A program made the translations under genes and the position numbers. Shown piece after piece: positions 11,778-32,967 of a stretch of DNA of 64,000 bases. Positions within the stretch are counted from its first letter, which is position 1; every line of letters starts with the position of its first letter. Source of the DNA: Parasphaerochaeta coccoides DSM 17374 (GTDB lineage Bacteria; Spirochaetota; Spirochaetia; Sphaerochaetales; Sphaerochaetaceae); assembly GCF_000208385.1 (NCBI RefSeq), contig NC_015436.1, positions 1,116,001 through 1,180,000 of the forward strand. The letters are read 5' to 3'. The notes beneath the pieces were generated by a model. It had not been told where the DNA came from, did no database searches, and saw only the letters and a list, made by a program, of their open reading frames with translations.

Positions 11778-11850
11778 AGGGAAGTAGCCAAGTGGTTAAG
11801 GCTCCGGTTTTTGATACCGGCATGCGTAGGTTCGAATCCTGCCTTCCCTG
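11778..11850 (+). tRNA. tRNA-Gln (anticodon TTG)
   Basis: A complete cloverleaf can be drawn. The acceptor stem AGGGAAG pairs with CTTCCCT, the D-arm contains GCCAAGTGGTTAAGGC, and the anticodon stem CCGGT/ACCGG holds the loop TTTTGAT with anticodon TTG. The T-arm is GTAGG-TTCGAAT-CCTGC. The discriminator is G, and CCA is not encoded (TAG follows). The anticodon and overall sequence fit glutamine. Confidence 0.95.
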
Positions 11851-17584: not shown

Positions 17585-18841
17585 TCATTTCACAATGATG
17601 CGGAAGAATTTCTTCTTGCCTGAACGAAGAATGAGTTCCCCCTGCTCGTCACGCCATGAACTGTCAATTACCTGGTCATGGGACTCAATCTTCGTTTCGT
17701 TGACATGCGCGCCACCTCCGGCTATAAGCCTCCGGCCATCGCTGTTCGACGGAACAAGTTTGCTTTCAACGAACAGCTCCAACGCAGGGATGCCAGATGC
17801 CAAACGGTCAGCAGGAATTTCCATTGACGGCATGCCTTCACGCGCGGCAGGATTGGCTCCCGTGCTTCCGAAAGCCGCCTTGGCGGCATCACGCGCCTTA
17901 TCCGCTTCCTCCTGCCCGTGGATGATTCTGGTCTGCTCCCATGCCAGCCGTTCCTTGACTTCATTGATGTTAACGCCCGGCTTGGCATAGTCATCGATTT
18001 CCTCCAAGGGAAGAAATGTGAACAGCTTCATGAACTTGAATACATCCGCATCATTGACATTGCGCCAATACTGGTAAAAATCGTAAGGCGAGTACATATC
18101 TGGGTCAAGGAACACCGCACCTTTCTCGCTCTTACCCATTTTCTTTCCATCTGCCCTCATGATGAGGTTGAAGGTCAACCCATAGCACTCGGCACTCTCC
18201 ATGCGCCGAATCAGGTCTATGCCTGCCACAATGTTACCCCACTGATCGTCTCCGCCCATCTGGAGCCTGCAACCATGGGTACGGTACAAGGTGAGGAAGT
18301 CATATGACTGGAGGAGCTGATAGTTGAACTCAATAAAGCTCAAGCCCCGTTCCAGACGTTGCTTGTAACTTTCAAAAGTCAGCATGCGGTTCACGGAGAA
18401 CTGGCTGCCAATCTCCCTGAGAAAATCAATGTAGTTCAAGCCGAGGAGCCAGTCAGCATTATTCACCATCTGCGCCCTGCCCAGCCCATTGGGAGGCATC
18501 TCGGCAAAGTCTATCACTGTTCCCAGTTGTTTCTTGATTGACGCGCTGTTGGCGGCAATCTGCTCATGGGTGAGCATCTTGCGCAGCTCGGTCTTACCGG
18601 AAGGATCCCCGATCATCCCGGTTCCTCCACCAACCAAGGCTATGGGATTATGCCCCGCTTCCTGCATGTGGTGCATGGCGAAGAAAGGAACCATATGACC
18701 GATGTGGATGCTCCGCCCGGAAGGATCGACTCCGACGTAGAAGGTAACGGGTTCCTTGTCCATCAAGTCACTCAAGGCATCACTATCAGTGCATGCCTTA
18801 ATGAAACCCCGGTCATGAAGAATCTGCAATGTCTTGTTCAT
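17585..18841 (-). CDS. tyrS: Tyrosyl-tRNA synthetase
   Basis: Charges tRNA-Tyr. The 418 aa contain the class I HIGH motif at 46-49, a DWLLGLNYIDFLREIG segment, QMGGDDQWGNI for tyrosine and tRNA contacts, and the KMSKS loop as KMGKS (~231-235). A C-terminal S4-like RNA-binding region (LIAGGGAHVNETKI) follows. It is the last gene of gltX-glyS-tyrS; its start lies one base after the glyS stop, so it is very likely cotranslated. Terminated by the hairpin at 17506-17543. Confidence 0.95.
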   Translation of the reverse strand: MNKTLQILHDRGFIKACTDSDALSDLMDKEPVTFYVGVDPSGRSIHIGHMVPFFAMHHMQEAGHNPIALVGGGTGMIGDPSGKTELRKMLTHEQIAANSASIKKQLGTVIDFAEMPPNGLGRAQMVNNADWLLGLNYIDFLREIGSQFSVNRMLTFESYKQRLERGLSFIEFNYQLLQSYDFLTLYRTHGCRLQMGGDDQWGNIVAGIDLIRRMESAECYGLTFNLIMRADGKKMGKSEKGAVFLDPDMYSPYDFYQYWRNVNDADVFKFMKLFTFLPLEEIDDYAKPGVNINEVKERLAWEQTRIIHGQEEADKARDAAKAAFGSTGANPAAREGMPSMEIPADRLASGIPALELFVESKLVPSNSDGRRLIAGGGAHVNETKIESHDQVIDSSWRDEQGELILRSGKKKFFRIIVK

Positions 18842-18842
18842 T

Positions 18843-20177
18843 TCACTTTCCTTGCGGACGCTTGTAGTCCTTCATCTCCTGCTTGATGCGGGCAGCGATC
18901 CCCGCGACAGGGACCCTTACCTGTTCCATGGAATCACGGAAACGCAAGGTCACGGTATTGTCTTCCAGTGTCTGATAATCGACTGTCACGCAATACGGCG
19001 TGCCAATCTCATCCTGGCGGCGATACCGGCGGCCGATAGCCCCACTGCGGTCAAAGAAAACCGTGTAATCCTCCCGGAGTTCTTTCTCAAGCTTCTGGGC
19101 GTATTCATCCAGTCCGTCTTTCTTGACCAGCGGCAGCACAGCCACCTTTACAGGCGCGATGGCAGGATGGAAATGAAGGACTGTACGGACATCGCCCGGA
19201 GCAATCTCTTCCTCATCATAGGCATCGGAGAGTGCCATCAGGACATTGCGGGTCAATCCTGCGGAAGTTTCTACCACGTAGGGGATGTAACGATCATTTG
19301 TCTCAGGATCCAGATAACTCTGATCCTTACCACTGAACGTCTGGTGCTGGGACAAGTCATAGTCAGTACGGCTATGCACGCCCTCAAGCTCCTGCCAGCC
19401 CATTGGAAAGAGGAACTGGATGTCATACGCGTCCTTGGCGTAGAAAGCAAGCTCATCCGGACCATGTTGATGCCAACGGAGGGACTCCGGCCGAATGCCC
19501 ATCCTGATATAGAAGTCCATCCGCTGTCCCCGCCAGTACGGGAACCATTCGTCCTCTGTTCCCGGCTTGCAGAAAAACTGCATCTCCATCTGCTCAAACT
19601 CACAGGAACGGAAGATGAAATTCTTGGTGGTGATTTCATTGCGGAATGATTTTCCAATCTGTGCTATGCCGAAAGGAACCTTGACCCGGCTGCTCTGCAC
19701 GACATTCTTGAAATCGACGTAAATACCTTGGGCAGTCTCAGGACGGAGGTACACAACGCTGGAAGAATCCGTGTTGGCGCCGATATGACTCTGGAACATC
19801 AGGTTGAAGTTACGCGGCTCGGTGAAGGAACCCTTGGTTCCGCAGACGGGACAAGGAGCGGACAAGTCAATCTGATCAGCACGGAAACGGGACTTGCACT
19901 GCTTACAGTCCACCATGGGGTCAGTGAAGTTGGAAACGTGACCGCTTGCCTCCCAGACACGCGGATGCATCAGGATTGAAGCATCAAGTCCTACAATGTC
20001 ATCATGAAGCTGTGTCATTTCCTTCCACCAGAAGTCACGGATGTTATTCTTCAGCTCAACTCCCATTGGACCGTAATCATATGCGCCGCTCAAACCACCG
20101 TAAATCTCGCTCGACTGGAAAATGAATCCACGCCTCTTGCACAGGGAAACAATCTTGTCCATCGTTACTTCAGCCAT
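18843..20177 (-). CDS. glyS: Glycyl-tRNA synthetase, single-chain alpha2 type
   Basis: Charges tRNA-Gly as a homodimer (the eukaryote/archaeal-like GlyQS form, not the alpha-beta tetramer). At 444 aa it has SGAYDYGPMG (~27-36), a zinc-ribbon-like CKQC...CPVC insert (~90-112), motif 2 around FRNEITTKNFIFRSCEFEQ, and ETAQGIYVDF (~147-156). The C-terminal anticodon-binding domain shows VAVLPLVKKDG. The start overlaps gltX by eight bases and the stop nearly touches tyrS, so the three are one translationally coupled unit. Confidence 0.95.
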   Translation of the reverse strand: MAEVTMDKIVSLCKRRGFIFQSSEIYGGLSGAYDYGPMGVELKNNIRDFWWKEMTQLHDDIVGLDASILMHPRVWEASGHVSNFTDPMVDCKQCKSRFRADQIDLSAPCPVCGTKGSFTEPRNFNLMFQSHIGANTDSSSVVYLRPETAQGIYVDFKNVVQSSRVKVPFGIAQIGKSFRNEITTKNFIFRSCEFEQMEMQFFCKPGTEDEWFPYWRGQRMDFYIRMGIRPESLRWHQHGPDELAFYAKDAYDIQFLFPMGWQELEGVHSRTDYDLSQHQTFSGKDQSYLDPETNDRYIPYVVETSAGLTRNVLMALSDAYDEEEIAPGDVRTVLHFHPAIAPVKVAVLPLVKKDGLDEYAQKLEKELREDYTVFFDRSGAIGRRYRRQDEIGTPYCVTVDYQTLEDNTVTLRFRDSMEQVRVPVAGIAARIKQEMKDYKRPQGK

Positions 20178-21663
20178 TTGCGCATACCTCTTGCTTCAAA
20201 ATATCTATCGCCCGTTCTATGCGGGAAAAACTCGTCTCAGCCCCTAGAACCCTGATGGAATCAAAGAGAGGCGGACTTACCGTACTACCGGTGACGGCGA
20301 CCCTGATGGGCTGGAACACACCGTTCACCTTCACCCCTGCTTCGCCCGCAAAGGCAGCCAAGTGGGATTCGATTTCCTCGTAAGGACTTCCAGCTTCCAC
20401 CATGGAGCGTAAAATTCCATATGCCTGCCCAAGCACTTCAAGCGTCTGTTCAGCATCCTGTTTCTTCGGCAGAAGGTCGGCCACGGCAGGAAAACCGGGG
20501 TCTGAAAAGATGAAGCTCGTCATGGGAACGACATCGGAAAGAACTTTCAGCCTTTCCTTCACCAAGGGAACAATCTCCAGAACCTTCCGCTGTTCCGTCT
20601 CTGTCGGGGGAGTACCGATGCAGCCAGACTGCTGAAGATACGGCTCCAGGAGGCTCGCCAGTTCAGCATCGCCCTTAAGGCGAATGTAATGACCGTTGTA
20701 CCAGTCCAGTTTCTTATAATCAAACACACCGGGACTTTTGGTGATTTTCTCCAGTGAGAACACCTTCTCAAGCTCATCTTTGCTGAAGAACTCCCGTTGT
20801 CCGTCGTAAGACCATCCGACCATGCTGACATAATTCATCAGTGCTTCCGGAAGATAGCCCTTTTCCCTGAAATCCTTCACGCTGGTCGAACCATGTCGTT
20901 TGGAAAGCTTATGTCCGTCGTTGCCCATCACCATGGGGAGGTGACAGTAGATAGGAGGTTCCCAGTCAAATGCTTCGTAAAGCAAGATATGGAGCGGCCC
21001 GGAAGGAATCCATTCCTGCGCTCGCATGATATGCGTGATGCCCATGAGGTGATCATCAATGACATTTGCCAGATGATAGGTCGGGAAACCGTCGCTTTTC
21101 AGCAAGACAGGATCAGGGTTCACATCTTTGTTCATCCGGGTGATGTCACCCATCAGGACATCATGAAAAGTCGTCGAACCTTCCAAAGGCACTTTCAGAC
21201 GGATGACAGGGGAAACGCCTTCCGCCTCTTTCCGCGCACGTTCTTCCGGAGTTAAATCGCGGCAATGGCGGTCATATCCCTGATATGGGCTTTTTGTCGC
21301 CTGCTGCTCTTCCCTGACCTGTTCAAGCCGTTCTGCGGTACAGTAACAGTAATATGCCTTGCCGTCTTCGACGAGCTTACGAGCATATTCACGATAGACA
21401 GCGTAACGCTCACTCTGGATATACGGATCATAGGGTCCGCCGACCTGGGGTCCTTCGTCCCATGTTATGCCCAGCCAGTCAAGCGTATCATACAGGTCAT
21501 GGAGGGCTTCCACCGTAGATCTTTCACGGTCTGTATCCTCGATGCGCAAAATGAACTTGCCACCGTTGGCACGGGCGAAAAAGTAATTGAACAGAGCGGT
21601 CCTGACCCCTCCGATATGTTGCAATCCAGTCGGAGACGGGGCATAGCGCACACGTACTTGCAT
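20170..21663 (-). CDS. gltX: Glutamyl-tRNA synthetase
   Basis: Charges tRNA-Glu, and possibly tRNA-Gln if the organism uses the amidation route. The 497 aa start with MQVRVRYAPSPTG, HIGG at 16-19 (HIGH motif), WDEGPQVGGPY, and KLSKRHG (~250; KMSKS motif). ATG 21663 has AAGGAG eight bases upstream and gives the canonical N-terminus; the frame runs eight codons further. It is the promoter-proximal gene of the gltX-glyS-tyrS unit. No T-box-like leader is seen in the 90 bases upstream. Confidence 0.95.
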   Translation of the reverse strand: MQVRVRYAPSPTGLQHIGGVRTALFNYFFARANGGKFILRIEDTDRERSTVEALHDLYDTLDWLGITWDEGPQVGGPYDPYIQSERYAVYREYARKLVEDGKAYYCYCTAERLEQVREEQQATKSPYQGYDRHCRDLTPEERARKEAEGVSPVIRLKVPLEGSTTFHDVLMGDITRMNKDVNPDPVLLKSDGFPTYHLANVIDDHLMGITHIMRAQEWIPSGPLHILLYEAFDWEPPIYCHLPMVMGNDGHKLSKRHGSTSVKDFREKGYLPEALMNYVSMVGWSYDGQREFFSKDELEKVFSLEKITKSPGVFDYKKLDWYNGHYIRLKGDAELASLLEPYLQQSGCIGTPPTETEQRKVLEIVPLVKERLKVLSDVVPMTSFIFSDPGFPAVADLLPKKQDAEQTLEVLGQAYGILRSMVEAGSPYEEIESHLAAFAGEAGVKVNGVFQPIRVAVTGSTVSPPLFDSIRVLGAETSFSRIERAIDILKQEVCANG

Positions 21664-21752
21664 TTTCGCGGCTCCTTGAAAACTCATGGGATGATGCTAT
21701 CAGTTGTATCCTAAAGACGAAAATATGACAAGGACATGGAGGGCACAAGACA

Positions 21753-22583
21753 TCATGCCAGCCAGTGAACCAAGGCGCTCATGGCGTGGTCACGGGCAGA
21801 GGGATCGCGGTCATACGGAATCAGATGGGTACAGCCGGGAACATGGAGATGTGAGTTGTTTCCCTGACCGCGACCGGTCGCCAGTTCGCATGCCTGCGGA
21901 GGGACAGTCTCATCCTGCCCGCCGCTGATTGCAAGGACATCCCCGGACAGGCGGGGCAGGCTTTCAACCGCAAGCCTGCGGATGGAATCCAAGTCAAGCA
22001 ACTTGTCGGCATACCGCCACTTCCAGTACTGCTCGCCGAGATAGGCGTCATCGTCAGGCTCTCCTTCATGAAACATCACGAAGGACGGGTCAGATTTCCA
22101 GTTCCGTTGTATTTTGCGAGTGAAAAGTGATATCAGGCGGACTTGCCAGCGTTTCAGATCGGGAATGACCAAGGCTGGTGCCAAGAGAACAAGCCTGCTG
22201 ATGTCCAACCGCGCCCCGATGATGACCGCCAAAGCCCCACCCATCGAATGCCCCACGAGTGAAACATCGTCATACCGGGCAAGGAGATCAGTACAGGCGG
22301 CTTGGGCTGTGCCAATCCAGTCGTCGGCACGTGAAGCAAGGAAATCAGTGGCTGACGTGCCATGTCCCGGATAACGGGGAGCATAGACATCCATGCCTGC
22401 TTCAAAGAGGCGCAGTCCTGGCAAAGCCATTTCACCCGGATAGCCATTATACCCATGGAGACAGAGCACGGCATGCTGAACCGAGTCTTCATGCACCAAA
22501 GCCCATGGGCGAGCGCTTTTCACCGGAGAGACAGTATCCTGATAGAATCCTTTGGTATAATCCGGAACGTCATAAGAAAACAT
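21753..22583 (-). CDS. Alpha/beta hydrolase (carboxylesterase/lysophospholipase-like)
   Basis: A 276-aa serine hydrolase. CLHGYNGYPGEM (~42-53) provides the oxyanion region, GHSMGGALA (~112-120) holds the nucleophile, GGQDETVP (~223-230) the acid and GCTHLIPYDRD (~250-260) the His. It resembles Est30-type carboxylesterases and monoacylglycerol lipases; the substrate is not visible. There is no signal peptide. The start is only three bases after the stop of the LuxR-family gene, with AGGGG/TAGGA as ribosome binding site, so it is the last gene of a four-gene unit starting with the RloA-like ATPase. Whether it belongs functionally with those genes is open. Confidence 0.82.
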   Translation of the reverse strand: MFSYDVPDYTKGFYQDTVSPVKSARPWALVHEDSVQHAVLCLHGYNGYPGEMALPGLRLFEAGMDVYAPRYPGHGTSATDFLASRADDWIGTAQAACTDLLARYDDVSLVGHSMGGALAVIIGARLDISRLVLLAPALVIPDLKRWQVRLISLFTRKIQRNWKSDPSFVMFHEGEPDDDAYLGEQYWKWRYADKLLDLDSIRRLAVESLPRLSGDVLAISGGQDETVPPQACELATGRGQGNNSHLHVPGCTHLIPYDRDPSARDHAMSALVHWLA

Positions 22584-22586
22584 GTC

Positions 22587-23486
22587 CTACCCCTGCCAGC
22601 TTTCCTTGAGAAGGTTCAGAAGGTCGATGCGGCTTCGCACTTCCGTTTTGGAAAAAATGTTCGCCACATGGTTGTTCACCGTATTGGTTGAAATGTTCAA
22701 CTCCATGGCAATCTCTTTGTTCGTCCGGCCATTGGCAATCAGTTTGATGACAGAAAATTCCCGTTCAGTGATGTGATAGGGCGCAAGCATTTCCAAAGTA
22801 ATTCCCTGGGGCTGCCCTGCTTTCTTCCCTGCTTCCTTTCCCGGAGAAAGCGCCATGAAAAGGAACACCATAAGGGTGATGGAATACGCAAGGAAATACA
22901 GGGGAATGAATATTCTGTTCAGGTGTGGGAAGATAATGCCCAGTACCAGGAGTGGAATCATGGAGAACGCAACGATGATAATGGACATGCTGACGTTCCG
23001 CACACGAGGGGACATAATATTCTTCAGGTTCTTCAAGAGTACGCTGAGGGAGAAGAAAAACGCAAAGATGAAGATACCTGTCCACAGAAGGGATATCCAG
23101 GAAAAAGTGAAGATGATGTCCAGCACTCCTAACGCCAGATATATGGCAGCAAGGAAGTAGAAGGACAGCTTGTAGGGATTACGCCATGGATGGGCGATGA
23201 CCCATGTGGTAAAGTACGGAATGAAGACAACCAGGAAAGTTGTCGCCGCCAGTATCACCGCCCTAAAAATATACGTGATGATATGAGCTGCGCTGGTGAA
23301 CCAGACAACATGGACAATCTCCTGGAGCGCAAGCATGACCATGCAGCCCAGCAAGGATGCATGCAAGACGATGAAAAGACCTGTCCATCTATAAGACGAC
23401 CGAAGATTATAGACAATGCCCAGCCCCAGGGTCATACACCCCAGGGCAAAGGCTGTCATATATACAAGTAAAATCATGCCGTCCAT
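22587..23486 (-). CDS. Membrane-bound LuxR-type transcription regulator (7-TM sensor)
   Basis: A 299-aa protein with about seven hydrophobic segments in the first 215 residues and a C-terminal LuxR/GerE helix-turn-helix (~235-290). The latter has ITEREFSVIKLIANGRTNKEIA and NISTNTVNNHVANIFSKTEV in the expected order. There is no receiver or kinase domain, so it probably senses a membrane or extracellular signal directly and binds DNA while anchored; that is inference. The ATG follows the RloB stop by eight bases with GAGG upstream, and the hydrolase gene follows by three bases. It may regulate its own operon. Confidence 0.8.
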   Translation of the reverse strand: MDGMILLVYMTAFALGCMTLGLGIVYNLRSSYRWTGLFIVLHASLLGCMVMLALQEIVHVVWFTSAAHIITYIFRAVILAATTFLVVFIPYFTTWVIAHPWRNPYKLSFYFLAAIYLALGVLDIIFTFSWISLLWTGIFIFAFFFSLSVLLKNLKNIMSPRVRNVSMSIIIVAFSMIPLLVLGIIFPHLNRIFIPLYFLAYSITLMVFLFMALSPGKEAGKKAGQPQGITLEMLAPYHITEREFSVIKLIANGRTNKEIAMELNISTNTVNNHVANIFSKTEVRSRIDLLNLLKESWQG

Positions 23487-23494
23487 GACCGGCC

Positions 23495-24136
23495 TCAGTT
23501 ATTCTTCAGACCAATCTGCTTCTGGTTATGCGTGATGTCGGCAAGGCCACAATACTCACTGATCTCATTGATCAACAGAGGAAGATTAGTCGCAGGGAAT
23601 CCAAGCCGCTCAGCTTGCCGTTCACTGTATGCCGAAGCGTTCAAGCCTGCACGAGCCTTGGAAGGGAACAGCTTCAAATGGAACGCCTGTCCATCAGTAA
23701 GCAGATAATAGGCAGTAGGATCATAACCGGGAACCAAGCGTGCGACATCACGGTCAATCGCCTCAGCACTGGTCAAGAGCCTGTCCGGCAAGGTTCCATG
23801 GAACAGATACCAGAGAGAGAAGGTCGGATAGACCCATGCCATGTGGACTTTCTTCTGCTCCGCAAACTCACGGTGCGCCCGGATATCATCAAACGACAGA
23901 GCGTAATCATTGAGTCCGAAGACAGTCCATACCGTATCGTATTTTCCAATGCGACGACGCAAATTGGCGAACAGAATCAAGCTCTTGAGGCCAGTTGCCT
24001 CTGAAGCCCATTCGACGTGAAGATTGGTATACCTACAGTCCTTCCTCACCTGGGAAAAGTATACAGCTTCCGCTTCGGTCGCCGTAACAATCAGCAAGGT
24101 TTTCAAAGGAAGATTCGTATTCTTCTTACGCTTCAT
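23495..24136 (-). CDS. RloB-like protein with altered TOPRIM-type motifs
   Basis: A 213-aa RloB-like protein (family PF13707), partner of RloA-type ATPases in AbiL-like phage defence; RloB is thought to be a TOPRIM-like nuclease. Family architecture is visible: LLIVTATEAEAVYF (14-27), where the family usually has CEGE.TE..YF; VWTVFGLNDY (~70-79), where DxDD is usual; and WVYPTFSLWYLFH near 101-113, matching the family's NPCFELWLL.H. The acidic residues expected for metal binding are therefore largely missing. ATG 24136 has AGGAGG upstream and overlaps the end of the ATPase gene by 11 bases. A Lys-rich start (KRKK) is typical. Confidence 0.75.
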   Translation of the reverse strand: MKRKKNTNLPLKTLLIVTATEAEAVYFSQVRKDCRYTNLHVEWASEATGLKSLILFANLRRRIGKYDTVWTVFGLNDYALSFDDIRAHREFAEQKKVHMAWVYPTFSLWYLFHGTLPDRLLTSAEAIDRDVARLVPGYDPTAYYLLTDGQAFHLKLFPSKARAGLNASAYSERQAERLGFPATNLPLLINEISEYCGLADITHNQKQIGLKNN

Positions 24137-25388
24137 TACCAGCCTCCTTGGACGGGGAATTGACGAAATAGAATTCCGATGTGATTGGCAAAGAGAGATA
24201 GACGCCACTCAGATACTGCTGGATTGTACGCCTTTCGTCACGGGTACGGGAGAAGCGGTAATCGGAAAGACTGTAATAAGTCGTAGCGCCCTCATTATCC
24301 TTCTGCGCAAACCAAATACCGTCGCGACGCAACAGCCCTTCAGTCAGCAAGGTCGGATTGCAGTCAACAGCCAGCATCTGGGAACCGCTTTGCGAATTAT
24401 TAGTCTCAAAAGCATCTACGACATGCTTGAGGACATCCGGATGGAGCAAAGTCCCGAAGTCATCAATGACCACTGTTCGGGCAGACACGAAGCTTTCAAA
24501 GAAGGACACTCCAATCAAGGACAACCGCCGTAGGCTGAGGGACTCCTGGGCAAAGTACGATGCATAGTGCTGGGTTACATTGGTATGGACGAAAATGATT
24601 CGGCCATCCTGAACACGCACCTGACGGATATCAGTGATATCATTGCTCCAAAGGAAGTTAATCAGTTGCTGCGACCAGTCCGGGTGAGCGGTAAGCTGCT
24701 CGACCAGATATTTCTCCGAGGCAGCCGAGACACCGAAAGGAAGAATCAGCAACCTTTCATCAATCCAAGAATACAGGGGAACGCATGTCTCGCTGCCTTT
24801 CCTTGCCGCTTCGGTAAGGAAAGATTTGCGGGGGCTCAGTTTCTTGACGAGCCGCTTCTTTTCTCCCCGGTACAGCTTACCCCAGCGGTAGTGGTAGGAC
24901 AACTCGGAAGCAGAACCATCGACCAGCTTTCGGTCAAACATGAGCTTGCGGGAACCACCGACAATGTGGTAGAGCGATTCCTCAAAGAACTTGTCCCTAT
25001 CCGCAACCAACGTGTACTGGGCGATGATTGTAGGGAATTCCTCTTGGTTGTCCGCCTTGCCGCGGTCAATGACGACTTGAATCCGAATCTTAGAAGGTCC
25101 TCCCTTCTGCTCGGAATAGGCAAAAGACGTACCGTTCAGGAGCAGCAGAGGATTCTCCACATCTTCGTCAGCAATGAGGATTGCCCTCAGTGCTTCCAAT
25201 GCTCGAACAAAGGTGCTCTTGCCGGCTCCATTGGGACCAATGACCGCCGCAGTCTTGATGACCTTCAACTTCTCGTTGATTGCGACGACTTTTGATTCCG
25301 GCAAACGGTTGTCCTTCACCGCCTGGAATGAAATTGTCTGCGGTGTCTTCACGGACCTGAAGTTCGCGATTGTCATGTCAAGCAGCAT
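24126..25388 (-). CDS. RloA/AbiLi-like AAA_15 ATPase
   Basis: A 420-aa ABC/OLD-type ATPase of the AAA_15 group paired with RloB in putative abortive-infection systems. It opens with LLDMTIANFRSVK and Walker A GPNGAGKST (51-59). A Walker B-like strand VVIDDFGTLLHPD (~305-317) has Asp where the catalytic Glu is usual. The switch region, normally TTHDT.LL or similar, reads AVDCNPTLLTEGLLRRDGIWF (~341), so the His is absent. LRRDGIWF and the C-terminal SLSDYRF and LSGVYLSLP segments match the family well. ATG 25388 follows GGGAGGG. It is the first gene of a unit with RloB-like, LuxR and hydrolase genes. Confidence 0.8.
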   Translation of the reverse strand: MLLDMTIANFRSVKTPQTISFQAVKDNRLPESKVVAINEKLKVIKTAAVIGPNGAGKSTFVRALEALRAILIADEDVENPLLLLNGTSFAYSEQKGGPSKIRIQVVIDRGKADNQEEFPTIIAQYTLVADRDKFFEESLYHIVGGSRKLMFDRKLVDGSASELSYHYRWGKLYRGEKKRLVKKLSPRKSFLTEAARKGSETCVPLYSWIDERLLILPFGVSAASEKYLVEQLTAHPDWSQQLINFLWSNDITDIRQVRVQDGRIIFVHTNVTQHYASYFAQESLSLRRLSLIGVSFFESFVSARTVVIDDFGTLLHPDVLKHVVDAFETNNSQSGSQMLAVDCNPTLLTEGLLRRDGIWFAQKDNEGATTYYSLSDYRFSRTRDERRTIQQYLSGVYLSLPITSEFYFVNSPSKEAGNEA

Positions 25389-25680
25389 ACGCTACCCTCC
25401 CGTTGAATGAAGCCGCCACCTTTTCCGGCACAACGGCATCCTCATCAGTTTCTTTGCCACTTCCGGTCCCCACAGGTCTCCCCGTTCACACATGACCGTC
25501 AGGCATCTTTCTTAAGGATACCCTGTTATTGCAAAAAGGTGAAGAAAAATCAAGCAAATGATTATTTCAGGCACTCATTGGCTTTTGATACTCCATTTTT
25601 AAGCATAAAATATCATTTTTACACCTCACTTTCCCCATAAGGACACCAAGCATGGAAAAATGCAGGAAAAATATTCCCCA
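25389..25680. other. Gene-free leader upstream of the RloA-like gene
   Basis: No coding region or RNA gene was recognised. On the minus strand TTGATT (25548-25553) and AATAAC (25525-25530) are 17 bases apart and could be the promoter of the RloA-RloB operon. The 25560-25640 part is AT-rich. Confidence 0.3.
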
Positions 25681-25718
25681 AAAAAAGGTGAAGAATTTTT
25701 TTTCTTCACCTTTTTTTT
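25681..25718. terminator. Bidirectional terminator
   Basis: GGTGAAGAA (25687-25695) pairs perfectly with TTCTTCACC (25702-25710) around a T6 loop, with A-tract and T-tract flanks on both sides. On the minus strand it ends the CsgG-like lipoprotein gene at 25762. Confidence 0.85.
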
Positions 25719-25761
25719 GTCCTTAAAAGAGAAAACTTCGGATTCCGGACGGATTTTCGGC

Positions 25762-26832
25762 TTACTTTATCTGTTCGTTTACCTTGGCACGGTTATCTAT
25801 CGTGGAGCGAATCGCCGACAAGACACGGGCGGCCTGGGGATTTCCACTGCTGGAATAAACGTGGTTCATCAGGTCAAGGGCTGCCTCAAGATCTCCGCGG
25901 GCATAGGCCAAGATAGCCGCATTATATCCTGATGGAATATGACCTTGCGTGTCCCACTGAGTCTTGAATATATCATACGCTACGTTCCTGTTTCCCTTGG
26001 AGACCATATCATACGCGGGGGCAGCCTGCGGGTTCTTTGGTTTATTGGGCATCAGGCTTTCAGAGCGTGAATATAAATGGGGAACAAGCTGTTGGACAAG
26101 TTCTTTCTGGAAACTGTCAACAACTTTTTGGAAAAGAGGCGTCACCGATGGCGCAACAGGAACATTCGTAGAAATCTCTACTTCCTGCGTCACCTTGTCT
26201 ATTATCTGCTTGGTAGCAAGGATATGCCCGTCGTTAATGTCGGTCAGCGTGTAGGTCAGATTCAAAGTGGCAATCTGGGTGATGATATAATCATGGCGGA
26301 TAAGGACGGGCACCTGCATTGGGACCCCTCCTTCCAATATTTCCTTATATTCATAAATAGGCTTGCTGGTCAGAGTCTCGGAAACATCCATGTAGTCAAT
26401 CGAACTGGTCAATAATGCTTCGACCCCATTTTTCTTCAAGGCTTCGGCGTTTCCCCATCCGACTTGCGTGAGATTGAGTACGGCATCTGTTACTTCCGGT
26501 CTGATGATTGTATAGACTCCGCCAGATGAAAGGGAACGGAGGATTTCCCGCGTAGCATAAGATGCGACATCTTCCTTCACGTTGGCTTCCACGCCGCTGA
26601 CGACGTTACCACCGCCCCATGTCCAATCTCCGGGGATGCTCACCCACCGTGGCGTGTTAATCGAACGATCATAGGGTTTCGTTGAAGCGACCGCTATGAC
26701 ACTTCGCCCACCCATATCGACCAGAGCGGGAACATATTCAGTGATGCTGACTACCGTGGAACAGGCCACAGCGGTCAGGAGTACGACGAAAACCAATAAT
26801 CCGACTTTCCAGAGCATGTGACGGTTATTCAT
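25762..26832 (-). CDS. CsgG-like lipoprotein with TPR-like C-terminus
   Basis: An exported lipoprotein of 356 aa: a signal segment, the lipobox TAVAC (Cys24), and then a region recalling the CsgG/LpoB/DUF6340 type (VDMGGRSVIAVA at ~40-51; a conserved YIITQIATLNLTYTL beta segment ~190). The last 90 residues (RNVAYDIFKTQW, ILAYARGDLEAALDLMNHV) look like one or two TPR helix pairs. The start at ATG 26832 has GGAGGGAGG just upstream. It probably sits in the outer membrane or periplasm and may assist envelope assembly or secretion; the function is inferred from fold likeness only. It lies divergent from the acidic protein gene. Confidence 0.6.
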   Translation of the reverse strand: MNNRHMLWKVGLLVFVVLLTAVACSTVVSITEYVPALVDMGGRSVIAVASTKPYDRSINTPRWVSIPGDWTWGGGNVVSGVEANVKEDVASYATREILRSLSSGGVYTIIRPEVTDAVLNLTQVGWGNAEALKKNGVEALLTSSIDYMDVSETLTSKPIYEYKEILEGGVPMQVPVLIRHDYIITQIATLNLTYTLTDINDGHILATKQIIDKVTQEVEISTNVPVAPSVTPLFQKVVDSFQKELVQQLVPHLYSRSESLMPNKPKNPQAAPAYDMVSKGNRNVAYDIFKTQWDTQGHIPSGYNAAILAYARGDLEAALDLMNHVYSSSGNPQAARVLSAIRSTIDNRAKVNEQIK

Positions 26833-26969: not shown

Positions 26970-27070
26970 AAGTTCATATGACCTGTCTGTCCGGGCATGG
27001 AATATACCTTATTATATGGAAGCGCGCGGGAGGTCGGCACAGGCGCGGGTCATCACCGATGGGGGAAAGT

Positions 27071-27358
27071 ATGGAAGACTGGCACGACGATGATGATCTT
27101 GCGGAAGAAGAAAACCGCTACTTCGGAGATATGGATGAAGAAGATGAAGATGAGGAACTCTTCGATGATTTCGCTGATGATATCAGTGATGACATTGGTG
27201 ACGATGAGATTATCAACGATGAGGACGATGATTCACTGATTGATGACAACTTCATTTTTGATGACGAGGACGAGACCGAGGAAGAAGATTTTGATGATGA
27301 CGACGATGACGACGGCTTCGATGATTTCCTTGACGTTGATGATGACGAGGAGATATAA
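27071..27358 (+). CDS. Extremely acidic Asp/Glu-rich small protein
   Basis: A 95-aa protein in which about 58 residues are Asp or Glu, in runs such as EEDEDEE and DDDDDDD broken by Phe, Ile and Leu. There is no Lys or Cys. ATG 27071 is preferred because GGGGGAAAG lies just before it; an in-frame ATG at 27059 overlaps that site. A consensus promoter lies about 100 bases upstream and a terminator about 40 bases downstream, so it is a free-standing gene. Similar acidic tails occur on RNA polymerase delta, DNA-mimic proteins and calcium-binding proteins. No family is assigned. The Asp-rich repeats do not match an EF-hand or RTX spacing. Confidence 0.65.
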   Translation: MEDWHDDDDLAEEENRYFGDMDEEDEDEELFDDFADDISDDIGDDEIINDEDDDSLIDDNFIFDDEDETEEEDFDDDDDDDGFDDFLDVDDDEEI

Positions 27359-27653: not shown

Positions 27654-27735
<82 letters not shown>

Positions 27736-27745
27736 ACTAAGCGTC

Positions 27746-30121
27746 ATGGTCTTCCTGACCATCCTGATGCTTCTTATCACCTTCATTTCATGCGACAACA
27801 AGCTGAATGTTTCACATACCAATGCAGTGCGCTTCTCTACGGAGATAGGACGCAAGGCCACAGCTAATTCCGAATGGCAAGCCGATGATGAAGTCGGCAT
27901 CTACATGGTAGCTCATGATGCCCTGGCAGCCACTGCCGCCTCAGAACGTGCAAACAAACTCTATACGGCTGACACAGCCTTCCAGACCTCTGGCTTCACT
28001 CCTGCTACCACTGCCGATACCTTGAAGTGGGATGACATTTCCAACTCTACCGCTACACACTTCGACTTCATCGCCTATTATCCTTACGTGTCTCCCATCG
28101 CTGATACCACGGCTCTATCCATAAACGTCTATCCCCTTGGTTCCGGGGAACAGGACACCGGAAAGGCTGACTTCCTGTGGGGACGCACCGACAATGTACA
28201 GAACAATACCTCGACGGTGCATCTGAAGCTTGACCATATGCTCTCCCGTCTGATTGTCAACATCTCTCCCAGCACGACCGTTGATGCTACGGCTATCAAT
28301 GATGCCACCGGTGGATTTACTGCTACGGTCACAGGCTTGAACACGCAGACCGCAATCAACCTGAATGACGGAACCTTGGATGCTGCCAGCGTCATTGACG
28401 CTATTGTCATGAAGGACATTTCCGACACCCTTACTCAATCTGAAAGGAATGAGGGCAAGAGGCGGTTCGAGGCAGTGCTGATACCTGTGGGCAACACTGA
28501 TGCTCTGGCTAACGTGAGCCTGGAGTTTACCCTGAGCGGTGGTGCTAAAGCTGGTACATACACATGGAAGCCAAGTACCACAGGTGCTGTAGCTGAGGGG
28601 GACAAGCACCTGATTCACTTTGACAAAGGCAAGCAGCATGTCTACAACATGACGCTGAACACGGATGACAATGAAGTCGCCGTTGCCGCCATCCAGATTG
28701 AGATAAAGGACTGGGACACCGGTGACGGGGTGAACGCGGCTGCAACCAAAGCATACAGCCTCACCTTTGGGGCCAACGAAGCCACGGGAGGCAGTGCTCC
28801 GGGACGGATGTATGCTCATGAGGGAAGCCTGGTCACACTGCCGGCTCCTGGAACATTGGAAAAGGATTTCTATTACTTCTACGGATGGAATACTCTGCCT
28901 AATGGCAACGGAACCCAATATGCCGCTGGTGATACATTCGTGGTTCCTGACCATGATGTGACACTGTATGCACGGTGGCTGGTGAAGGTCAAGGCAGTCT
29001 CCGCCGGAGGTTATCACACGATGATCCTGAAGGAGGACGACACGCTCTGGGGGACAGGACGGATCGACTATGATCAACTGGGTATCGGCATAATGGGTCC
29101 ACCGATAAGCACGCCCATGCGGGTCAAGGTTAGTATGGCCGACTTCATAACTGATGTCGCGGCTGTCTCCGCTGGAGAAAACCATACGATGATCCTGAAG
29201 AAGGACCTCACGCTCTGGGCGGCTGGACGCAACAATAATGGCCAACTGGGTGTCGGTGATAATAATCCCGACTCAATGAAGCCCGTGGTGCAGGTCAAGG
29301 CGAGTCCCGTCAAGAACGACTTCATGACTGATGTCAAGGAAGTCTCCGCCGGAGCCGCCCATACGATGATTTTGAAGGAGGACGACGCGCTCTGGGCGAC
29401 TGGAGCCAACTATTATGGTCAACTGGGTGACGGCACTATAATCGACAAAACCACCATTCCCGTGCAGGTCATGACTAATGTCGCGGCTGTCTCCGCCGGA
29501 CTGAATCACACGATGATTGTGAAGAAAGACGGCACGCTCTGGGCGACTGGACGCAACAATGAAGGTCAACTGGGTGACGGCACTACGACCCTCAGAGGCG
29601 CGCCCGTGCGGGTCAAGGATGATACCGATATTTCCGGGTTCATGACTGATGTCGCGGCGGTCTTCGCCGGATACGAACACACGATGATCCTGAAGACTGA
29701 CGGCACACTCTGGGCGACTGGAGGCAACAGTGCTGGCCAACTGGGTGACGGCACTTTGGGTACAGAGCAAAGCAAAAGCACGCCCGTGCAGGTCAAGGAT
29801 GATACCGATATTTCCGGGTTCATGACTGATGTCGCGGCTGTCTCCGCCGGATGGTTCCATACGATGATCCTTAAGAAGGACGGCACGCTCTGGGCGACTG
29901 GATCCAACAGTTCTGGTCAACTGGGTGACGGCACTACGACCACCAGAACTACTCCCAAACAGGTCATGACTGATGTCGCGGCTGTCTCCGTCGGATATTA
30001 CCATACGATAATCCTGAAGAAGGACGGCACGCTCTGGGCGGCTGGATGGAACGGAGATGGTCAACTGGGTATCGGCACAGCACTCACCACGACAAGCACG
30101 CCCGTGCAGGTAATTTTTTAG
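27746..30121 (+). CDS. Fimbrillin-like/InlB-repeat/RCC1-repeat surface lipoprotein, probably phase variable
   Basis: A 791-aa exported protein as read from ATG 27746. A signal segment ends in TFISC (Cys16). Residues ~20-330 resemble the Bacteroidetes fimbrillin (Mfa-like) domain: WQADDEVGIYM, a FIAYYPY segment, and FEAVLIPVG followed by a calyx-like C-terminal sheet. Residues ~335-411 form an InlB/Listeria-Bacteroides repeat (FYGWNTLPNGNGTQY, ending TLYARW). Residues ~415-791 hold seven RCC1-type repeats, each with xxHTMILKxDxTLWAxG and GQLGxG. ATG 27746 lacks a good ribosome binding site; the better start is ATG 27670, out of frame at (GA)30. A terminal seven-bladed propeller suggests binding to a host or partner molecule. 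A Bacteroidetes origin of the N-terminal domain is inferred. Confidence 0.85.
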   Translation: MVFLTILMLLITFISCDNKLNVSHTNAVRFSTEIGRKATANSEWQADDEVGIYMVAHDALAATAASERANKLYTADTAFQTSGFTPATTADTLKWDDISNSTATHFDFIAYYPYVSPIADTTALSINVYPLGSGEQDTGKADFLWGRTDNVQNNTSTVHLKLDHMLSRLIVNISPSTTVDATAINDATGGFTATVTGLNTQTAINLNDGTLDAASVIDAIVMKDISDTLTQSERNEGKRRFEAVLIPVGNTDALANVSLEFTLSGGAKAGTYTWKPSTTGAVAEGDKHLIHFDKGKQHVYNMTLNTDDNEVAVAAIQIEIKDWDTGDGVNAAATKAYSLTFGANEATGGSAPGRMYAHEGSLVTLPAPGTLEKDFYYFYGWNTLPNGNGTQYAAGDTFVVPDHDVTLYARWLVKVKAVSAGGYHTMILKEDDTLWGTGRIDYDQLGIGIMGPPISTPMRVKVSMADFITDVAAVSAGENHTMILKKDLTLWAAGRNNNGQLGVGDNNPDSMKPVVQVKASPVKNDFMTDVKEVSAGAAHTMILKEDDALWATGANYYGQLGDGTIIDKTTIPVQVMTNVAAVSAGLNHTMIVKKDGTLWATGRNNEGQLGDGTTTLRGAPVRVKDDTDISGFMTDVAAVFAGYEHTMILKTDGTLWATGGNSAGQLGDGTLGTEQSKSTPVQVKDDTDISGFMTDVAAVSAGWFHTMILKKDGTLWATGSNSSGQLGDGTTTTRTTPKQVMTDVAAVSVGYYHTIILKKDGTLWAAGWNGDGQLGIGTALTTTSTPVQVIF
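28984..30118 (+). repeat. Seven tandem RCC1-coding units
   Basis: Seven in-frame units of about 145-180 bases inside the lipoprotein gene. The DNA is highly alike around the HTMILK and TLWATG codons, with CTCTGGGCGACTGGA recurring. The three residues before HT differ in nearly every unit (GGY, GEN, GAA, GLN, GYE, GWF, GYY). Units 5 and 6 share VKDDTDISGFMTDVAAV, a sign of recent duplication or gene conversion. Confidence 0.9.
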
Positions 30122-30756: not shown

Positions 30757-31770
30757 ATGACAATCCGCAGAACAGCTCTCATCATTGTCCTGTCCCTCAT
30801 TTCTTTTTCCCTGGCGGCGACCGGAGCAAAGGAATCTTCCCCGTCGCGGAATATCTCAGTGACGACGATTGGCATTTCTCAGCTCGTATCTCATCCGGCG
30901 CTCGACTCCATTGCCCAAGGCATAGAAGATTACCTTGCGGAAAAAAAGCTTCCTGTCGAGGTAGAACTCCAGAACGCAAGCGGTGAAATATCAACGGCCG
31001 CGGCCATAGCCCGGAAGTTCAAGATGGACGGCAAGGACATTGTAGTGGGCATAGCCACTCCCACAGCGCAAGCACTTGCCAATGCCATCACGACATCTCC
31101 TGTCGTGTTCAGCGCGGTGACTGAGCCAATTTCAGCGGGACTTGTCTCATCCTATGCGCCTGAACCAGGATCAAATGTCACGGGAGTTTCGGACTTGACC
31201 CCCGTCGCCGAGCAGATTGCCCTTTTCATCAGGGTCACAGGAGCAAGGAAGTTGGGCATGGTCTATACCAGCGGAGAGGCAAACGGAGTCGTCCAGATGG
31301 AAATGGCCAAGGAGGCGGCACAGAAAGCCGGAGTTGAATTTATCTCTGCGTCCGTGTCAAATTCCGCTGAAGTGAAGATGGCCACCCAGTCAATCATCGA
31401 ACGGGTCGATGCCCTGTACATTGCCATTGATAATACGGTGGTCAGTGCCATTGCGTCAGTCTCCGATGTAGCGAAAAAAGCGGGCAAGCCTCTCTTTAAC
31501 GCCGACACCACATCCAGCGAAGGAATTGATTTCCTCATGTCATGGGGCTTTGATTACTATAATTTCGGTACGGCTACCGGTCAGGTAATAGAACGCTTGA
31601 TCAACGGTGAGAAACCAAGTGATATCGGAACCGTATTCCTTGATGACCCTACCCTGTTTGAATTGTGGATAAACATGGATGTCGCGCAAGAGCTTGGAGT
31701 AGTATTCCCTGCCGATATCCTGCAAGCGGCGAAAGTCGTTTTCCAGGCTGGAGAGAAGCACATCAAGTAA
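30757..31770 (+). CDS. ABC importer substrate-binding protein, copy 1 (TrpX/COG2984 family)
   Basis: A 337-aa exported binding protein of the PF04392 family. The signal peptide ends near SLAATGAKES, with no lipobox Cys. Core motifs are IGISQLVSHPALD (~36-48), VGIATPTAQALANAI (~100-114), VTEPISAGLV, TGVSDLTPV, MVYTSGEANGVVQ (~168-180), IAIDNTVVSAIASV (~226-239) and NADTTSSEGIDFLMSWGFDYY. The latter two regions match the ligand hinge in its two paralogues. GGAGACACACC precedes the ATG. It is the first of three tandem paralogues feeding one permease and one ATPase. COG2984 ligands in other bacteria include tryptophan and tyrosine; the ligand here is unknown. Confidence 0.85.
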   Translation: MTIRRTALIIVLSLISFSLAATGAKESSPSRNISVTTIGISQLVSHPALDSIAQGIEDYLAEKKLPVEVELQNASGEISTAAAIARKFKMDGKDIVVGIATPTAQALANAITTSPVVFSAVTEPISAGLVSSYAPEPGSNVTGVSDLTPVAEQIALFIRVTGARKLGMVYTSGEANGVVQMEMAKEAAQKAGVEFISASVSNSAEVKMATQSIIERVDALYIAIDNTVVSAIASVSDVAKKAGKPLFNADTTSSEGIDFLMSWGFDYYNFGTATGQVIERLINGEKPSDIGTVFLDDPTLFELWINMDVAQELGVVFPADILQAAKVVFQAGEKHIK

Positions 31771-31782
31771 ATCACGAAAAAA

Positions 31783-31816
31783 TGCATGAATAATGAATTA
31801 TTATTCATAAAAATGC
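31783..31816 (+). promoter_or_regulatory. AT-rich dyad between the first two binding-protein genes
   Basis: TGCAT and GAATAAT (from 31783) pair with ATTATTC and ATGCA (to 31816). It could be an RNA 3'-end hairpin of copy 1 or an operator for the promoter at 31836-31864. Confidence 0.4.
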
Positions 31817-31835
31817 ATATTGACCTCACGACCAA

Positions 31836-31864
31836 TTTACAAGGAAGAAAGGCTGTTGTATAGT
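31836..31864 (+). promoter_or_regulatory. Candidate internal promoter before binding-protein copy 2
   Basis: TTTACA (31836-31841), a 17-base spacer and TATAGT (31859-31864). It lies 55 bases before the ATG of copy 2 and would let copies 2 and 3 be expressed apart from copy 1. Confidence 0.5.
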
Positions 31865-31919
31865 TTTGCTCATTAAAGCATAGAGTACTCACAGCAATGG
31901 ATAAGAGGGGAGAAAAGTT

Positions 31920-32942
31920 ATGAAGAAAACATTGAAAAAGGCCGGGGGCATTCTTCTGCTTGCCGTAGGCGTCTGCGCCTCATTGTGGGCGGGAGGGACT
32001 TCAGAAGCTCCATCCGCAGGAAAGAAAGCCGGAGTGACCAAAATCGGCGTTTCAAAGCTGCTTGCTCACCCTGCGCTCGACGCGGCGGAGCAAGGCATGG
32101 TCGATTATCTAAAACAGACCGGGCTGTCCGTTTCCTTTGATTCCCAGAATGCCAACGGTGAAATTGCCACAGCCTCATCCATTGCTCAGAAATTTAAGAA
32201 TGACCGTGCGGATATTGTCGTAGGCATTGCCACTCCATCAGCGCAAGCACTTGCCAATGTCTTCACTGATATTCCTGTCGTATTCACCGCCGTTACTGAT
32301 CCGGTAGCCGCAGGATTGGTTGCCTCGGCTACGGCAGGCGGAGGGAATGTCACCGGTGTCTCCGACGCGAATCCCATCAAGGAACAACTTGAGCTTTTCA
32401 AGCGTCTTACTGGCGCACGGACGATTGGCATGATTTATTCCAGTGGTGAAGCCAATGCCATTGTTCAGATGGAGGAAGCCCAAATCGCGGCCTCTGAGCT
32501 GGGCATGGCCTTTGTCCCGGTAGCCATTGCTAATTCCGCCGAGGTGAAGCTGGCAGCCCAGTCCATCATTGACAGAATTGATGCCGTGTACATCGCTACG
32601 GACAACACCGTAGTAAGCGCCATTGCCTCCGTCTCTGATGTCTGCATGAAGGCAGGCAAGCCACTGTTCAACGCCGACACCACATCCAGCGATGGCATTG
32701 ACTTCTTCCTCTCATGGGGGTTCAACTATTACAGCCTGGGAGTAGCGACCGGCAAGCTTGTTGAGAGAATTATCAACGGCGAGAATCCCGGCAGCATTCC
32801 TACCGTCTTCTTGAGCGATCCCTCTGAATTTGAACTGTGGGTCAACCTTGATGTCGCGGGGAAACTTGGTCTGACCGTTCCGCAAGACATCCTGGACGCT
32901 GCAAAGGTCATTGTACAAGATGGTCGGAAAATCACCCGGTAG
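31920..32942 (+). CDS. ABC importer substrate-binding protein, copy 2 (TrpX/COG2984 family)
   Basis: A 340-aa paralogue of the preceding protein. The signal peptide ends near SLWAGGTSEA. It shares KIGVSKLLAHPALDAAEQGM, VGIATPSAQALANV, VTDPVAAGLV, GVSDANPIKEQLELF and NADTTSSDGIDFFLSWGFNYY. GGGGAGAAAAG precedes the ATG. It has its own likely promoter and is followed at 25 bases by copy 3. It is closer to copy 3 than to copy 1 in the DAAEQGM and KEQLELF segments, so the array probably grew by two duplications. The retained differences may mean different ligands. Confidence 0.86.
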   Translation: MKKTLKKAGGILLLAVGVCASLWAGGTSEAPSAGKKAGVTKIGVSKLLAHPALDAAEQGMVDYLKQTGLSVSFDSQNANGEIATASSIAQKFKNDRADIVVGIATPSAQALANVFTDIPVVFTAVTDPVAAGLVASATAGGGNVTGVSDANPIKEQLELFKRLTGARTIGMIYSSGEANAIVQMEEAQIAASELGMAFVPVAIANSAEVKLAAQSIIDRIDAVYIATDNTVVSAIASVSDVCMKAGKPLFNADTTSSDGIDFFLSWGFNYYSLGVATGKLVERIINGENPGSIPTVFLSDPSEFELWVNLDVAGKLGLTVPQDILDAAKVIVQDGRKITR

Positions 32943-32967
32943 AGCAAAGGAAAAAGGAGATACGGAA

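What the first reader, a model, noticed from the sequence alone, without database searches (positions are those of the whole stretch)
21753..25388. Four-gene unit: RloA-like ATPase, RloB-like protein, 7-TM LuxR regulator, hydrolase
The four genes are joined by an 11-base overlap, an 8-base gap and a 3-base gap, each with its own ribosome binding site, so they are very likely one transcript. RloA/RloB pairs are known as AbiL-type defence candidates, but a membrane LuxR sensor and an alpha/beta hydrolase as further members would be new. A membrane signal could control the ATPase/effector, or the hydrolase could be a lipid-attacking effector.
Basis: partly seen in the sequence, partly recalled or inferred. 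Interest (0 to 1): 0.7.

Follow-up and report, generated by a model that had tools for sequence, protein, structure and literature searches.

The report
Retired phage-defence pair turned core gene
A gene pair related to the AbiL phage-defence proteins has become a near-universal, strongly conserved part of a whole bacterial family's chromosome, although both proteins have lost residues their defence relatives use as enzymes, so it probably now does an unknown housekeeping or regulatory job, perhaps with the membrane-bound gene regulator and lipase-like enzyme encoded beside it.

Summary
In detail: four minus-strand genes, RloA/AbiLi-like ATPase, RloB/AbiLii-like protein, 7-TM LuxR-type regulator and alpha/beta hydrolase, with exactly the stated overlap and gaps. 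The order is not a local accident: RloA and RloB are each in 125 of 139 genomes of the family and LuxR in 128, usually in this order before gltX-glyS-tyrS. The defence reading is not supported. (1) The pair is vertically inherited chromosome backbone under purifying selection (median dN/dS 0.024 for RloA, 0.074 for RloB). (2) RloB has lost the Toprim glutamate in every relative examined and the first DxD aspartate in almost all; canonical RloBs of the same bacteria keep both. (3) RloA keeps Walker A, but the Walker B glutamate, signature glycine and H-loop histidine are replaced. In sister families the pair lies behind a BY-kinase and a CpsB phosphatase, an exopolysaccharide context. RloA and RloB are kept or lost together; LuxR and the hydrolase are lost separately, so a four-part machine is not shown. 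Most likely an exapted, non-nucleolytic, ATP-binding regulatory complex, possibly of envelope functions. No experiment was possible; the present function is inferred.

The parts
24126..25388 (-). RloA/AbiLi-like ATPase gene (420 aa)
   Evidence: Pfam AAA_21, PADLOC AbiLi 4e-55; orthologues in 125 of 139 family genomes
25215..25238 (-). RloA Walker A GPNGAGKS (residues 51-58), intact
   Evidence: Lys conserved 31/31 and 83/83
24522..24545 (-). RloA ABC-type signature ESLSLRRL (residues 282-289); canonical Gly replaced by Ser
   Evidence: lineage S 29/31 (G in the 2 sister-family sequences), canonical G 21/21
24459..24464 (-). RloA Walker B D309-D310; catalytic Glu replaced by Asp
   Evidence: lineage D 31/31, canonical E 21/21; 83/83 D
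24360..24362 (-). RloA H-loop position C343; canonical His
   Evidence: lineage C 29 / V 2 of 31, canonical H 17 / Q 4 of 21
23495..24136 (-). RloB/AbiLii-like gene (213 aa), Toprim-type protein without the catalytic acids
   Evidence: PF13707 37.5 bits; hhalign 99.7% to canonical RloB; AF2 pLDDT 92
24080..24082 (-). RloB A19, position of the canonical Toprim Glu
   Evidence: lineage A/S/T/G 31/31, canonical E 15/15 aligned
23909..23917 (-). RloB G74-L75-N76, position of canonical DxD
   Evidence: first Asp lost 29/31, canonical D 16/16; hhalign places it here
22587..23486 (-). 7-TM LuxR-type (GerE HTH) regulator gene (299 aa)
   Evidence: GerE 9e-18; AF2 model of 7 TM helices plus HTH; in 128 of 139 family genomes
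21753..22583 (-). alpha/beta hydrolase gene (276 aa), complete Ser113-Asp224-His253 triad
   Evidence: Abhydrolase_6; nearest solved chains LipS, monoacylglycerol lipases and carboxylesterases; triad 25/25 conserved
20170..21687 (-). gltX, followed by glyS (18843-20177) and tyrS (17585-18841): conserved downstream neighbours
   Evidence: order kept in most relatives with the locus
25680..25717 (.). 16-pair hairpin with T-rich flanks between the upstream lipoprotein-like gene and rloA, terminator-like
   Evidence: fold -19.3 kcal/mol; makes rloA the probable first gene of the unit in this genome
25762..26832 (-). lipoprotein-like gene; most relatives have btuR and CpsB-like genes between it and rloA, missing here
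   Evidence: no PF19567 match in this genome

Best explanation
This is an exapted (domesticated) AbiL/RloAB-type pair. Shown by comparison: an RloAB pair of defence-type ancestry became fixed before the family diverged, has been inherited largely vertically, is under strong purifying selection, and has lost the Toprim Glu of RloB and three hydrolysis-linked residues of RloA while keeping the ATP-binding motif. Inferred: RloA binds ATP with little or no turnover and forms a nucleotide-gated scaffold; RloB is a non-nucleolytic partner whose new conserved motifs (MRKDCRYxN near the N-terminus, CGxADxSHNQK at the C-terminus) dock a client. The complex acts as a regulatory switch; the membrane LuxR protein encoded with it reads an envelope signal and sets transcription, and the hydrolase acts on a lipid or ester substrate. 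The sister-family context (sugar nucleotidyltransferase, BY-kinase, CpsB phosphatase, then rloA-rloB) points to envelope or exopolysaccharide control. Rough likelihoods: exapted and non-nucleolytic 0.8; ATP-gated regulator 0.5; envelope/exopolysaccharide role 0.35; RloAB and LuxR in one pathway 0.5.
For: Near-core: RloA 125/139, RloB 125/139, LuxR 128/139 family genomes; 71/75, 71/75 and 70/75 of the high-quality ones. Among 395 genomes of the class only this family and two sister families have the lineage, plus one borderline hit with canonical residues. Lineage monophyletic apart from canonical copies (support 1.0 RloA, 0.94 RloB); RloA+RloB share 13 of 19 splits with gltX+glyS+tyrS against at most 3 in 200 permutations. 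dN/dS medians RloA 0.024, RloB 0.074, LuxR 0.064, gltX 0.089. Motif losses, alignment confirmed by profile comparison at 99.7%. The Toprim Glu is needed in the relative AriB (E26A inactive, PMC12409363) and RloB has been linked to OLD_TOPRIM (PMC10440598). Fold matches of the RloB model include OLD Toprim 6nk8 (Z 7.3, rmsd 4.8, 152 residues) and PARIS 8ux9 (Z 5.4). BY-kinase/CpsB context in all four sister-family loci, the kinase frame broken in one; CpsB directly before rloA in 73 of 107 loci.
Against: No functional data. The window's own genome has neither the CpsB nor the GNVR kinase gene, so RloAB is kept without them. The surrounding tens of kb are themselves widely syntenic in the family, which weakens shared order as a sign of shared function. 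LuxR and hydrolase are lost independently of RloAB. A degenerate ATPase alone does not exclude defence: GajA is reported to have lost hydrolysis yet defends (PMC12796447). Fold matches for RloB are below the Z of 8 that would be clear. The second DxD position and the FE glutamate are kept in part of the family.
Confidence: 0.6

Rival explanations
1. Bystander operon: RloAB and LuxR-hydrolase are two unrelated modules that lie together only because the whole chromosomal stretch is inherited together. Not exclusive of the exaptation claim.
For: Surrounding genes are syntenic over tens of kb. Separate losses: of eight family genomes without RloAB in the 61-genome set, seven keep the LuxR orthologue; G013 and G029 keep RloAB without LuxR or hydrolase; G007, G014 and G024 lack the hydrolase. 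In family f4 the pairs lie about 5 kb apart.
Against: Junctions stay mostly at -14 to +50 bases through 35-57% protein identity, whereas hydrolase-gltX gaps are larger (median 101).
Confidence: 0.4
2. Neofunctionalised enzyme: RloB has a new active site built from lineage-specific residues (D33, C34, R35, C196) and the conserved H113.
For: Nearly invariant polar residues absent from or variable in canonical RloB; strong purifying selection.
Against: H113 is shared with canonical RloB and the other residues could equally be a binding surface; no known catalytic pattern was recognised.
Confidence: 0.15
3. Still defence, without nuclease: the pair is a decoy or guard that senses phage or restrains active RloAB copies.
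For: Defence ancestry; many family genomes also hold canonical RloAB copies.
Against: About a dozen genomes, the window's included, have the lineage pair and no other RloB match, and G019, G025 and G027 have canonical RloB without the lineage pair. Near-universal presence and very low dN/dS are unlike an arms race.
Confidence: 0.15
4. One reading: a working AbiL-type abortive-infection system with LuxR control and a lipid-attacking effector.
For: PADLOC AbiLi/AbiLii matches; F. nucleatum AbiLii is toxic in E. coli (PMC3985639); hydrolase triad intact.
Against: Toprim Glu lost in all, first DxD Asp in nearly all; RloA hydrolysis residues replaced; vertical near-core distribution; no close copy on plasmids or phages.
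Confidence: 0.05

Closest known systems
AbiL (AbiLi/AbiLii) of Lactococcus; RloA/RloB pairs
   Same: Two-gene ATPase plus RloB architecture, adjacent or overlapping genes, clear profile matches
   Different: Here vertically fixed, RloB without Toprim acids, RloA without Walker B Glu, signature Gly and H-loop His, with 7-TM LuxR and hydrolase genes behind it
PARIS (AriA/AriB) and OLD-family Toprim nucleases (Gabija GajA, P2 Old)
   Same: ABC-type ATPase paired with a Toprim partner; RloB model aligns with OLD Toprim 6nk8 and PARIS 8ux9
   Different: Those keep the Toprim metal site and are defence systems; the fold match here is only moderate
Cran1 (class 5 OLD protein of Sulfolobales, PMC12796447)
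   Same: Precedent for an OLD-type protein outside defence, conserved across an order and sharing a putative operon with a membrane protein gene
   Different: Cran1 is one fused protein with intact active sites and nickase activity, from an archaeon
BY-kinase / CpsB exopolysaccharide loci
   Same: In sister families rloAB follows NTP_transferase, Wzz-GNVR-AAA_31 kinase and CpsB/CapC genes
   Different: To my knowledge RloAB and a 7-TM LuxR are not described members of such loci; kinase and phosphatase are absent from the window's genome

Membership tests
AbiL / RloAB defence system | AAA_21/AbiLi ATPase directly followed by RloB (PF13707) | tested here: met
AbiL / RloAB defence system | Toprim acidic active site of RloB (Glu and DxD) | tested here: not met
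   Glu lost 31/31, first Asp lost 29/31 against 15/15 and 16/16 kept in canonical copies; same in 82 further loci
AbiL / RloAB defence system | Patchy, mobile distribution | tested here: not met
   125/139 family genomes, tree congruence, no close plasmid or phage copy
AbiL / RloAB defence system | Protection from phage | not testable with these tools
   needs phage challenge
ABC-type AAA_21 ATPase | Walker A and Walker B Asp | tested here: met
   31/31
ABC-type AAA_21 ATPase | Catalytic Glu, signature Gly, H-loop His | tested here: not met
   D 31/31, S 29/31, C or V 31/31
Toprim fold | Toprim-like fold of RloB | tested here: inconclusive
   OLD Toprim domains rank among the best matches but Z 7.3 is middling
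LuxR (GerE) regulators with membrane sensor | GerE HTH plus multi-TM N-terminal domain | tested here: met
   GerE 9e-18, 7 TM helices in model, HTH matches NarL
alpha/beta hydrolase, lipase/esterase type | Ser-Asp-His triad | tested here: met
   25/25 orthologues, Pfam and PDB matches
PARIS | Catalytic Toprim Glu (AriB E26) | tested here: not met
   E26A is inactive in AriB (PMC12409363)

The most novel reading that the evidence does not exclude
A phage-defence ATPase/Toprim pair was stripped of both catalytic activities and recruited, with a 7-TM membrane transcription factor and a lipase-like enzyme, into an important signalling system of a spirochaete family that links cellular ATP or envelope state to exopolysaccharide or membrane gene control.
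Probability: 0.3. Interest if true: 0.8.

Novelty: new variant of a known kind. Interest (0 to 1): 0.6.

Why it matters
Defence genes are expected to be mobile, patchy and fast-evolving. Here an AbiL-type pair is near-core, with RloA under stronger constraint than a tRNA synthetase, and with its defence chemistry apparently removed. If confirmed it would be a bacterial case of exaptation with loss of catalysis, to set beside the archaeal Cran1, and a warning that automatic defence finders can label housekeeping genes as AbiL. It also offers a clean comparison of canonical and degenerate RloAB in the same genomes, to ask what the ATPase scaffold does without a nuclease.

Tried and rejected
Sigma-70 promoter and terminator scans of 21400-26000 gave no more sites than shuffles, so no promoter is claimed. 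Sequence search of solved structures found no RloB relative. No RNA family lies near the unit; the only hit was a tRNA at 11778. Foldseek on the LuxR model gave only weak 7-TM matches besides the HTH, so no sensor class or ligand is assigned. A first mapping of the Toprim Glu column by a text motif failed because of an inserted residue (motif-1 rows) and was redone by column and by hhalign; the DxD and FE rows stand. Literature searches linking Sphaerochaeta with LuxR, or CpsB with BY-kinase and LuxR, found no paper. Decoy-for-canonical-copies was considered and marked down because the two kinds occur independently. A tRNA-related role suggested by the neighbouring gltX-glyS-tyrS was considered and not adopted: neighbours over tens of kb are also syntenic, and the only extra hint is the 1-base rloB/gltX overlap in two small genomes.
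Full report
What is there. The window lies in a 2,227,296-base single-contig genome; length and family suggest a Sphaerochaeta-type spirochaete (the species is from memory and untested). On the minus strand lie rloA (24126-25388), rloB (23495-24136), a LuxR-type gene (22587-23486) and an alpha/beta hydrolase gene (21753-22583), with an 11-base overlap and gaps of 8 and 3 bases, each start with a plausible ribosome-binding sequence. Profile searches confirm AAA_21/AbiLi, RloB/AbiLii, GerE and Abhydrolase_6. A 16-pair hairpin with T-rich flanks (25680-25717, -19.3 kcal/mol) separates the unit from an upstream lipoprotein-like gene, so rloA is probably first in the transcript; this was not measured.

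Conservation. Orthologues of all four are found across the family with RloA 47-73%, RloB 32-49%, LuxR 32-57% and hydrolase 33-52% identity. Gene order in fetched loci is typically lipoprotein - btuR - CpsB-like - rloA - rloB - luxR - hydrolase - gltX - glyS - tyrS, with local losses and a few insertions. In 139 family genomes RloA and RloB are each found in 125 and LuxR in 128. In 82 loci, 80 of them named GTDB records such as Sphaerochaeta halotolerans, Bullifex porci and Pleomorphochaeta, rloA-rloB are adjacent in all 82 and rloB-luxR within 50 bases in 75 of 76. These sets overlap in genomes and are not independent. In the class the lineage occurs outside this family only in two sister families (G038, G186; G039, G167), apart from one borderline hit (G040) whose residues are canonical.

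Vertical inheritance. The lineage separates from canonical RloA/RloB copies of the same bacteria with support 1.0 and 0.94. RloA+RloB share 13 of 19 splits with gltX+glyS+tyrS (permutation maximum 3), distance correlation 0.83; 3 of 15 strong splits conflict, so the agreement is good but not perfect. Plasmid and phage collections hold only distant relatives (best about 26%). dN/dS among close pairs has medians 0.024 (RloA), 0.074 (RloB), 0.064 (LuxR), 0.089 (gltX); several of the 14 pairs repeat the same genomes under two locus names.

Loss of catalytic residues. Against canonical RloB from AbiL-type pairs in the same group, the Toprim Glu is A/S/T/G in 31/31 (canonical E 15/15 aligned) and the first DxD Asp is lost in 29/31 (canonical D 16/16). 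In the 82 further loci plus the window the Glu is absent in 83/83 and the first Asp is present in only 2/83; the second DxD position is still Asp in 49/83 and the FE glutamate still Glu in 33/83, so the loss is complete for one residue, near-complete for another and partial for the rest. hhalign aligns the lineage with canonical RloB at 99.7% probability and gives the same columns. The AlphaFold model (pLDDT 92) puts these positions at the ends of strands, as expected of a Toprim site; fold matches include OLD Toprim and PARIS chains at moderate Z. In RloA, Walker A and the Walker B Asp are kept, but the catalytic Glu is Asp (31/31), the signature Gly is Ser (29/31) and the H-loop His is Cys or Val (31/31), against E 21/21, G 21/21 and H 17/21 (Q 4) in canonical copies. 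The sister-family sequences keep the signature Gly, suggesting stepwise loss. The closest canonical relative (G040) has all these residues. That the changes abolish activity is inferred, from AriB E26A (PMC12409363) and general knowledge of ABC ATPases.

Context. In the sister-family loci L120, L121 and L262 the order is sugar nucleotidyltransferase, BY-kinase (Wzz-GNVR-AAA_31), CpsB/CapC phosphatase, rloA, rloB; L263 has the same with a kinase reading frame that appears broken in the draft contig. In this family and its sisters CpsB lies directly before rloA in 73 of 107 loci with its putative metal-site residues conserved, while within the family the kinase lies 36-53 kb upstream on the same strand in 18 of 19 genomes with both on one contig. 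The window's genome has neither. The stretch upstream of rloA is itself syntenic between the window, G022 and G031, so shared order alone must not be over-read.

Modularity. RloA and RloB are present or absent together except in fragmentary assemblies (G138, G160). Small genomes without RloAB keep LuxR near or beside gltX (G006, G008, G012, G019, G034); G013 and G029 keep RloAB directly before gltX, with LuxR and hydrolase gone; G007, G014 and G024 lack the hydrolase; G018 lacks LuxR. So RloAB is one obligate pair, and LuxR and hydrolase are frequent but separable companions.

Interpretation. The pair is best seen as an exapted AbiL-type complex, no longer a Toprim nuclease, kept for a cellular role. 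A regulatory, ATP-binding scaffold is the mechanism I favour, with envelope or exopolysaccharide control as the likeliest field because of the BY-kinase/CpsB ancestry and the membrane regulator; this part is inference. The archaeal Cran1 is a precedent for an OLD-type protein outside defence (PMC12796447), but it is catalytically active. Rivals (bystander operon, new enzyme, nuclease-free defence, ordinary AbiL) are listed with the results that would decide between them.

Noticed in passing
window 27670-27746: A perfect (GA)30 dinucleotide tract directly after an ATG and just before an RCC1-repeat, lipoprotein-like ORF (27746-30121, +); looks like a phase-variation tract.
   Followed up: partly
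window 29145-29942: Internal repeats of about 180 and 318 bases in the RCC1-repeat ORF.
   Followed up: no
window 30757-33981: Three consecutive, mutually similar substrate-binding-protein-like genes (+); relatives of the second lie upstream of the same locus in G022 and G031.
   Followed up: no
window 26978-27358: Short ORF coding a protein made largely of Asp and Glu, no Pfam match.
   Followed up: no
L110:6110-7953 and L125:5024-6858: In two 1.2 Mb genomes rloB overlaps gltX by one base after loss of LuxR and hydrolase, so RloAB is probably co-transcribed with a tRNA synthetase gene there.
   Followed up: partly
L263:4930-6460: BY-kinase C-terminal region appears frame-broken in this draft contig, followed by a stretch of KKPEAE-like repeats before the CpsB gene.
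   Followed up: no
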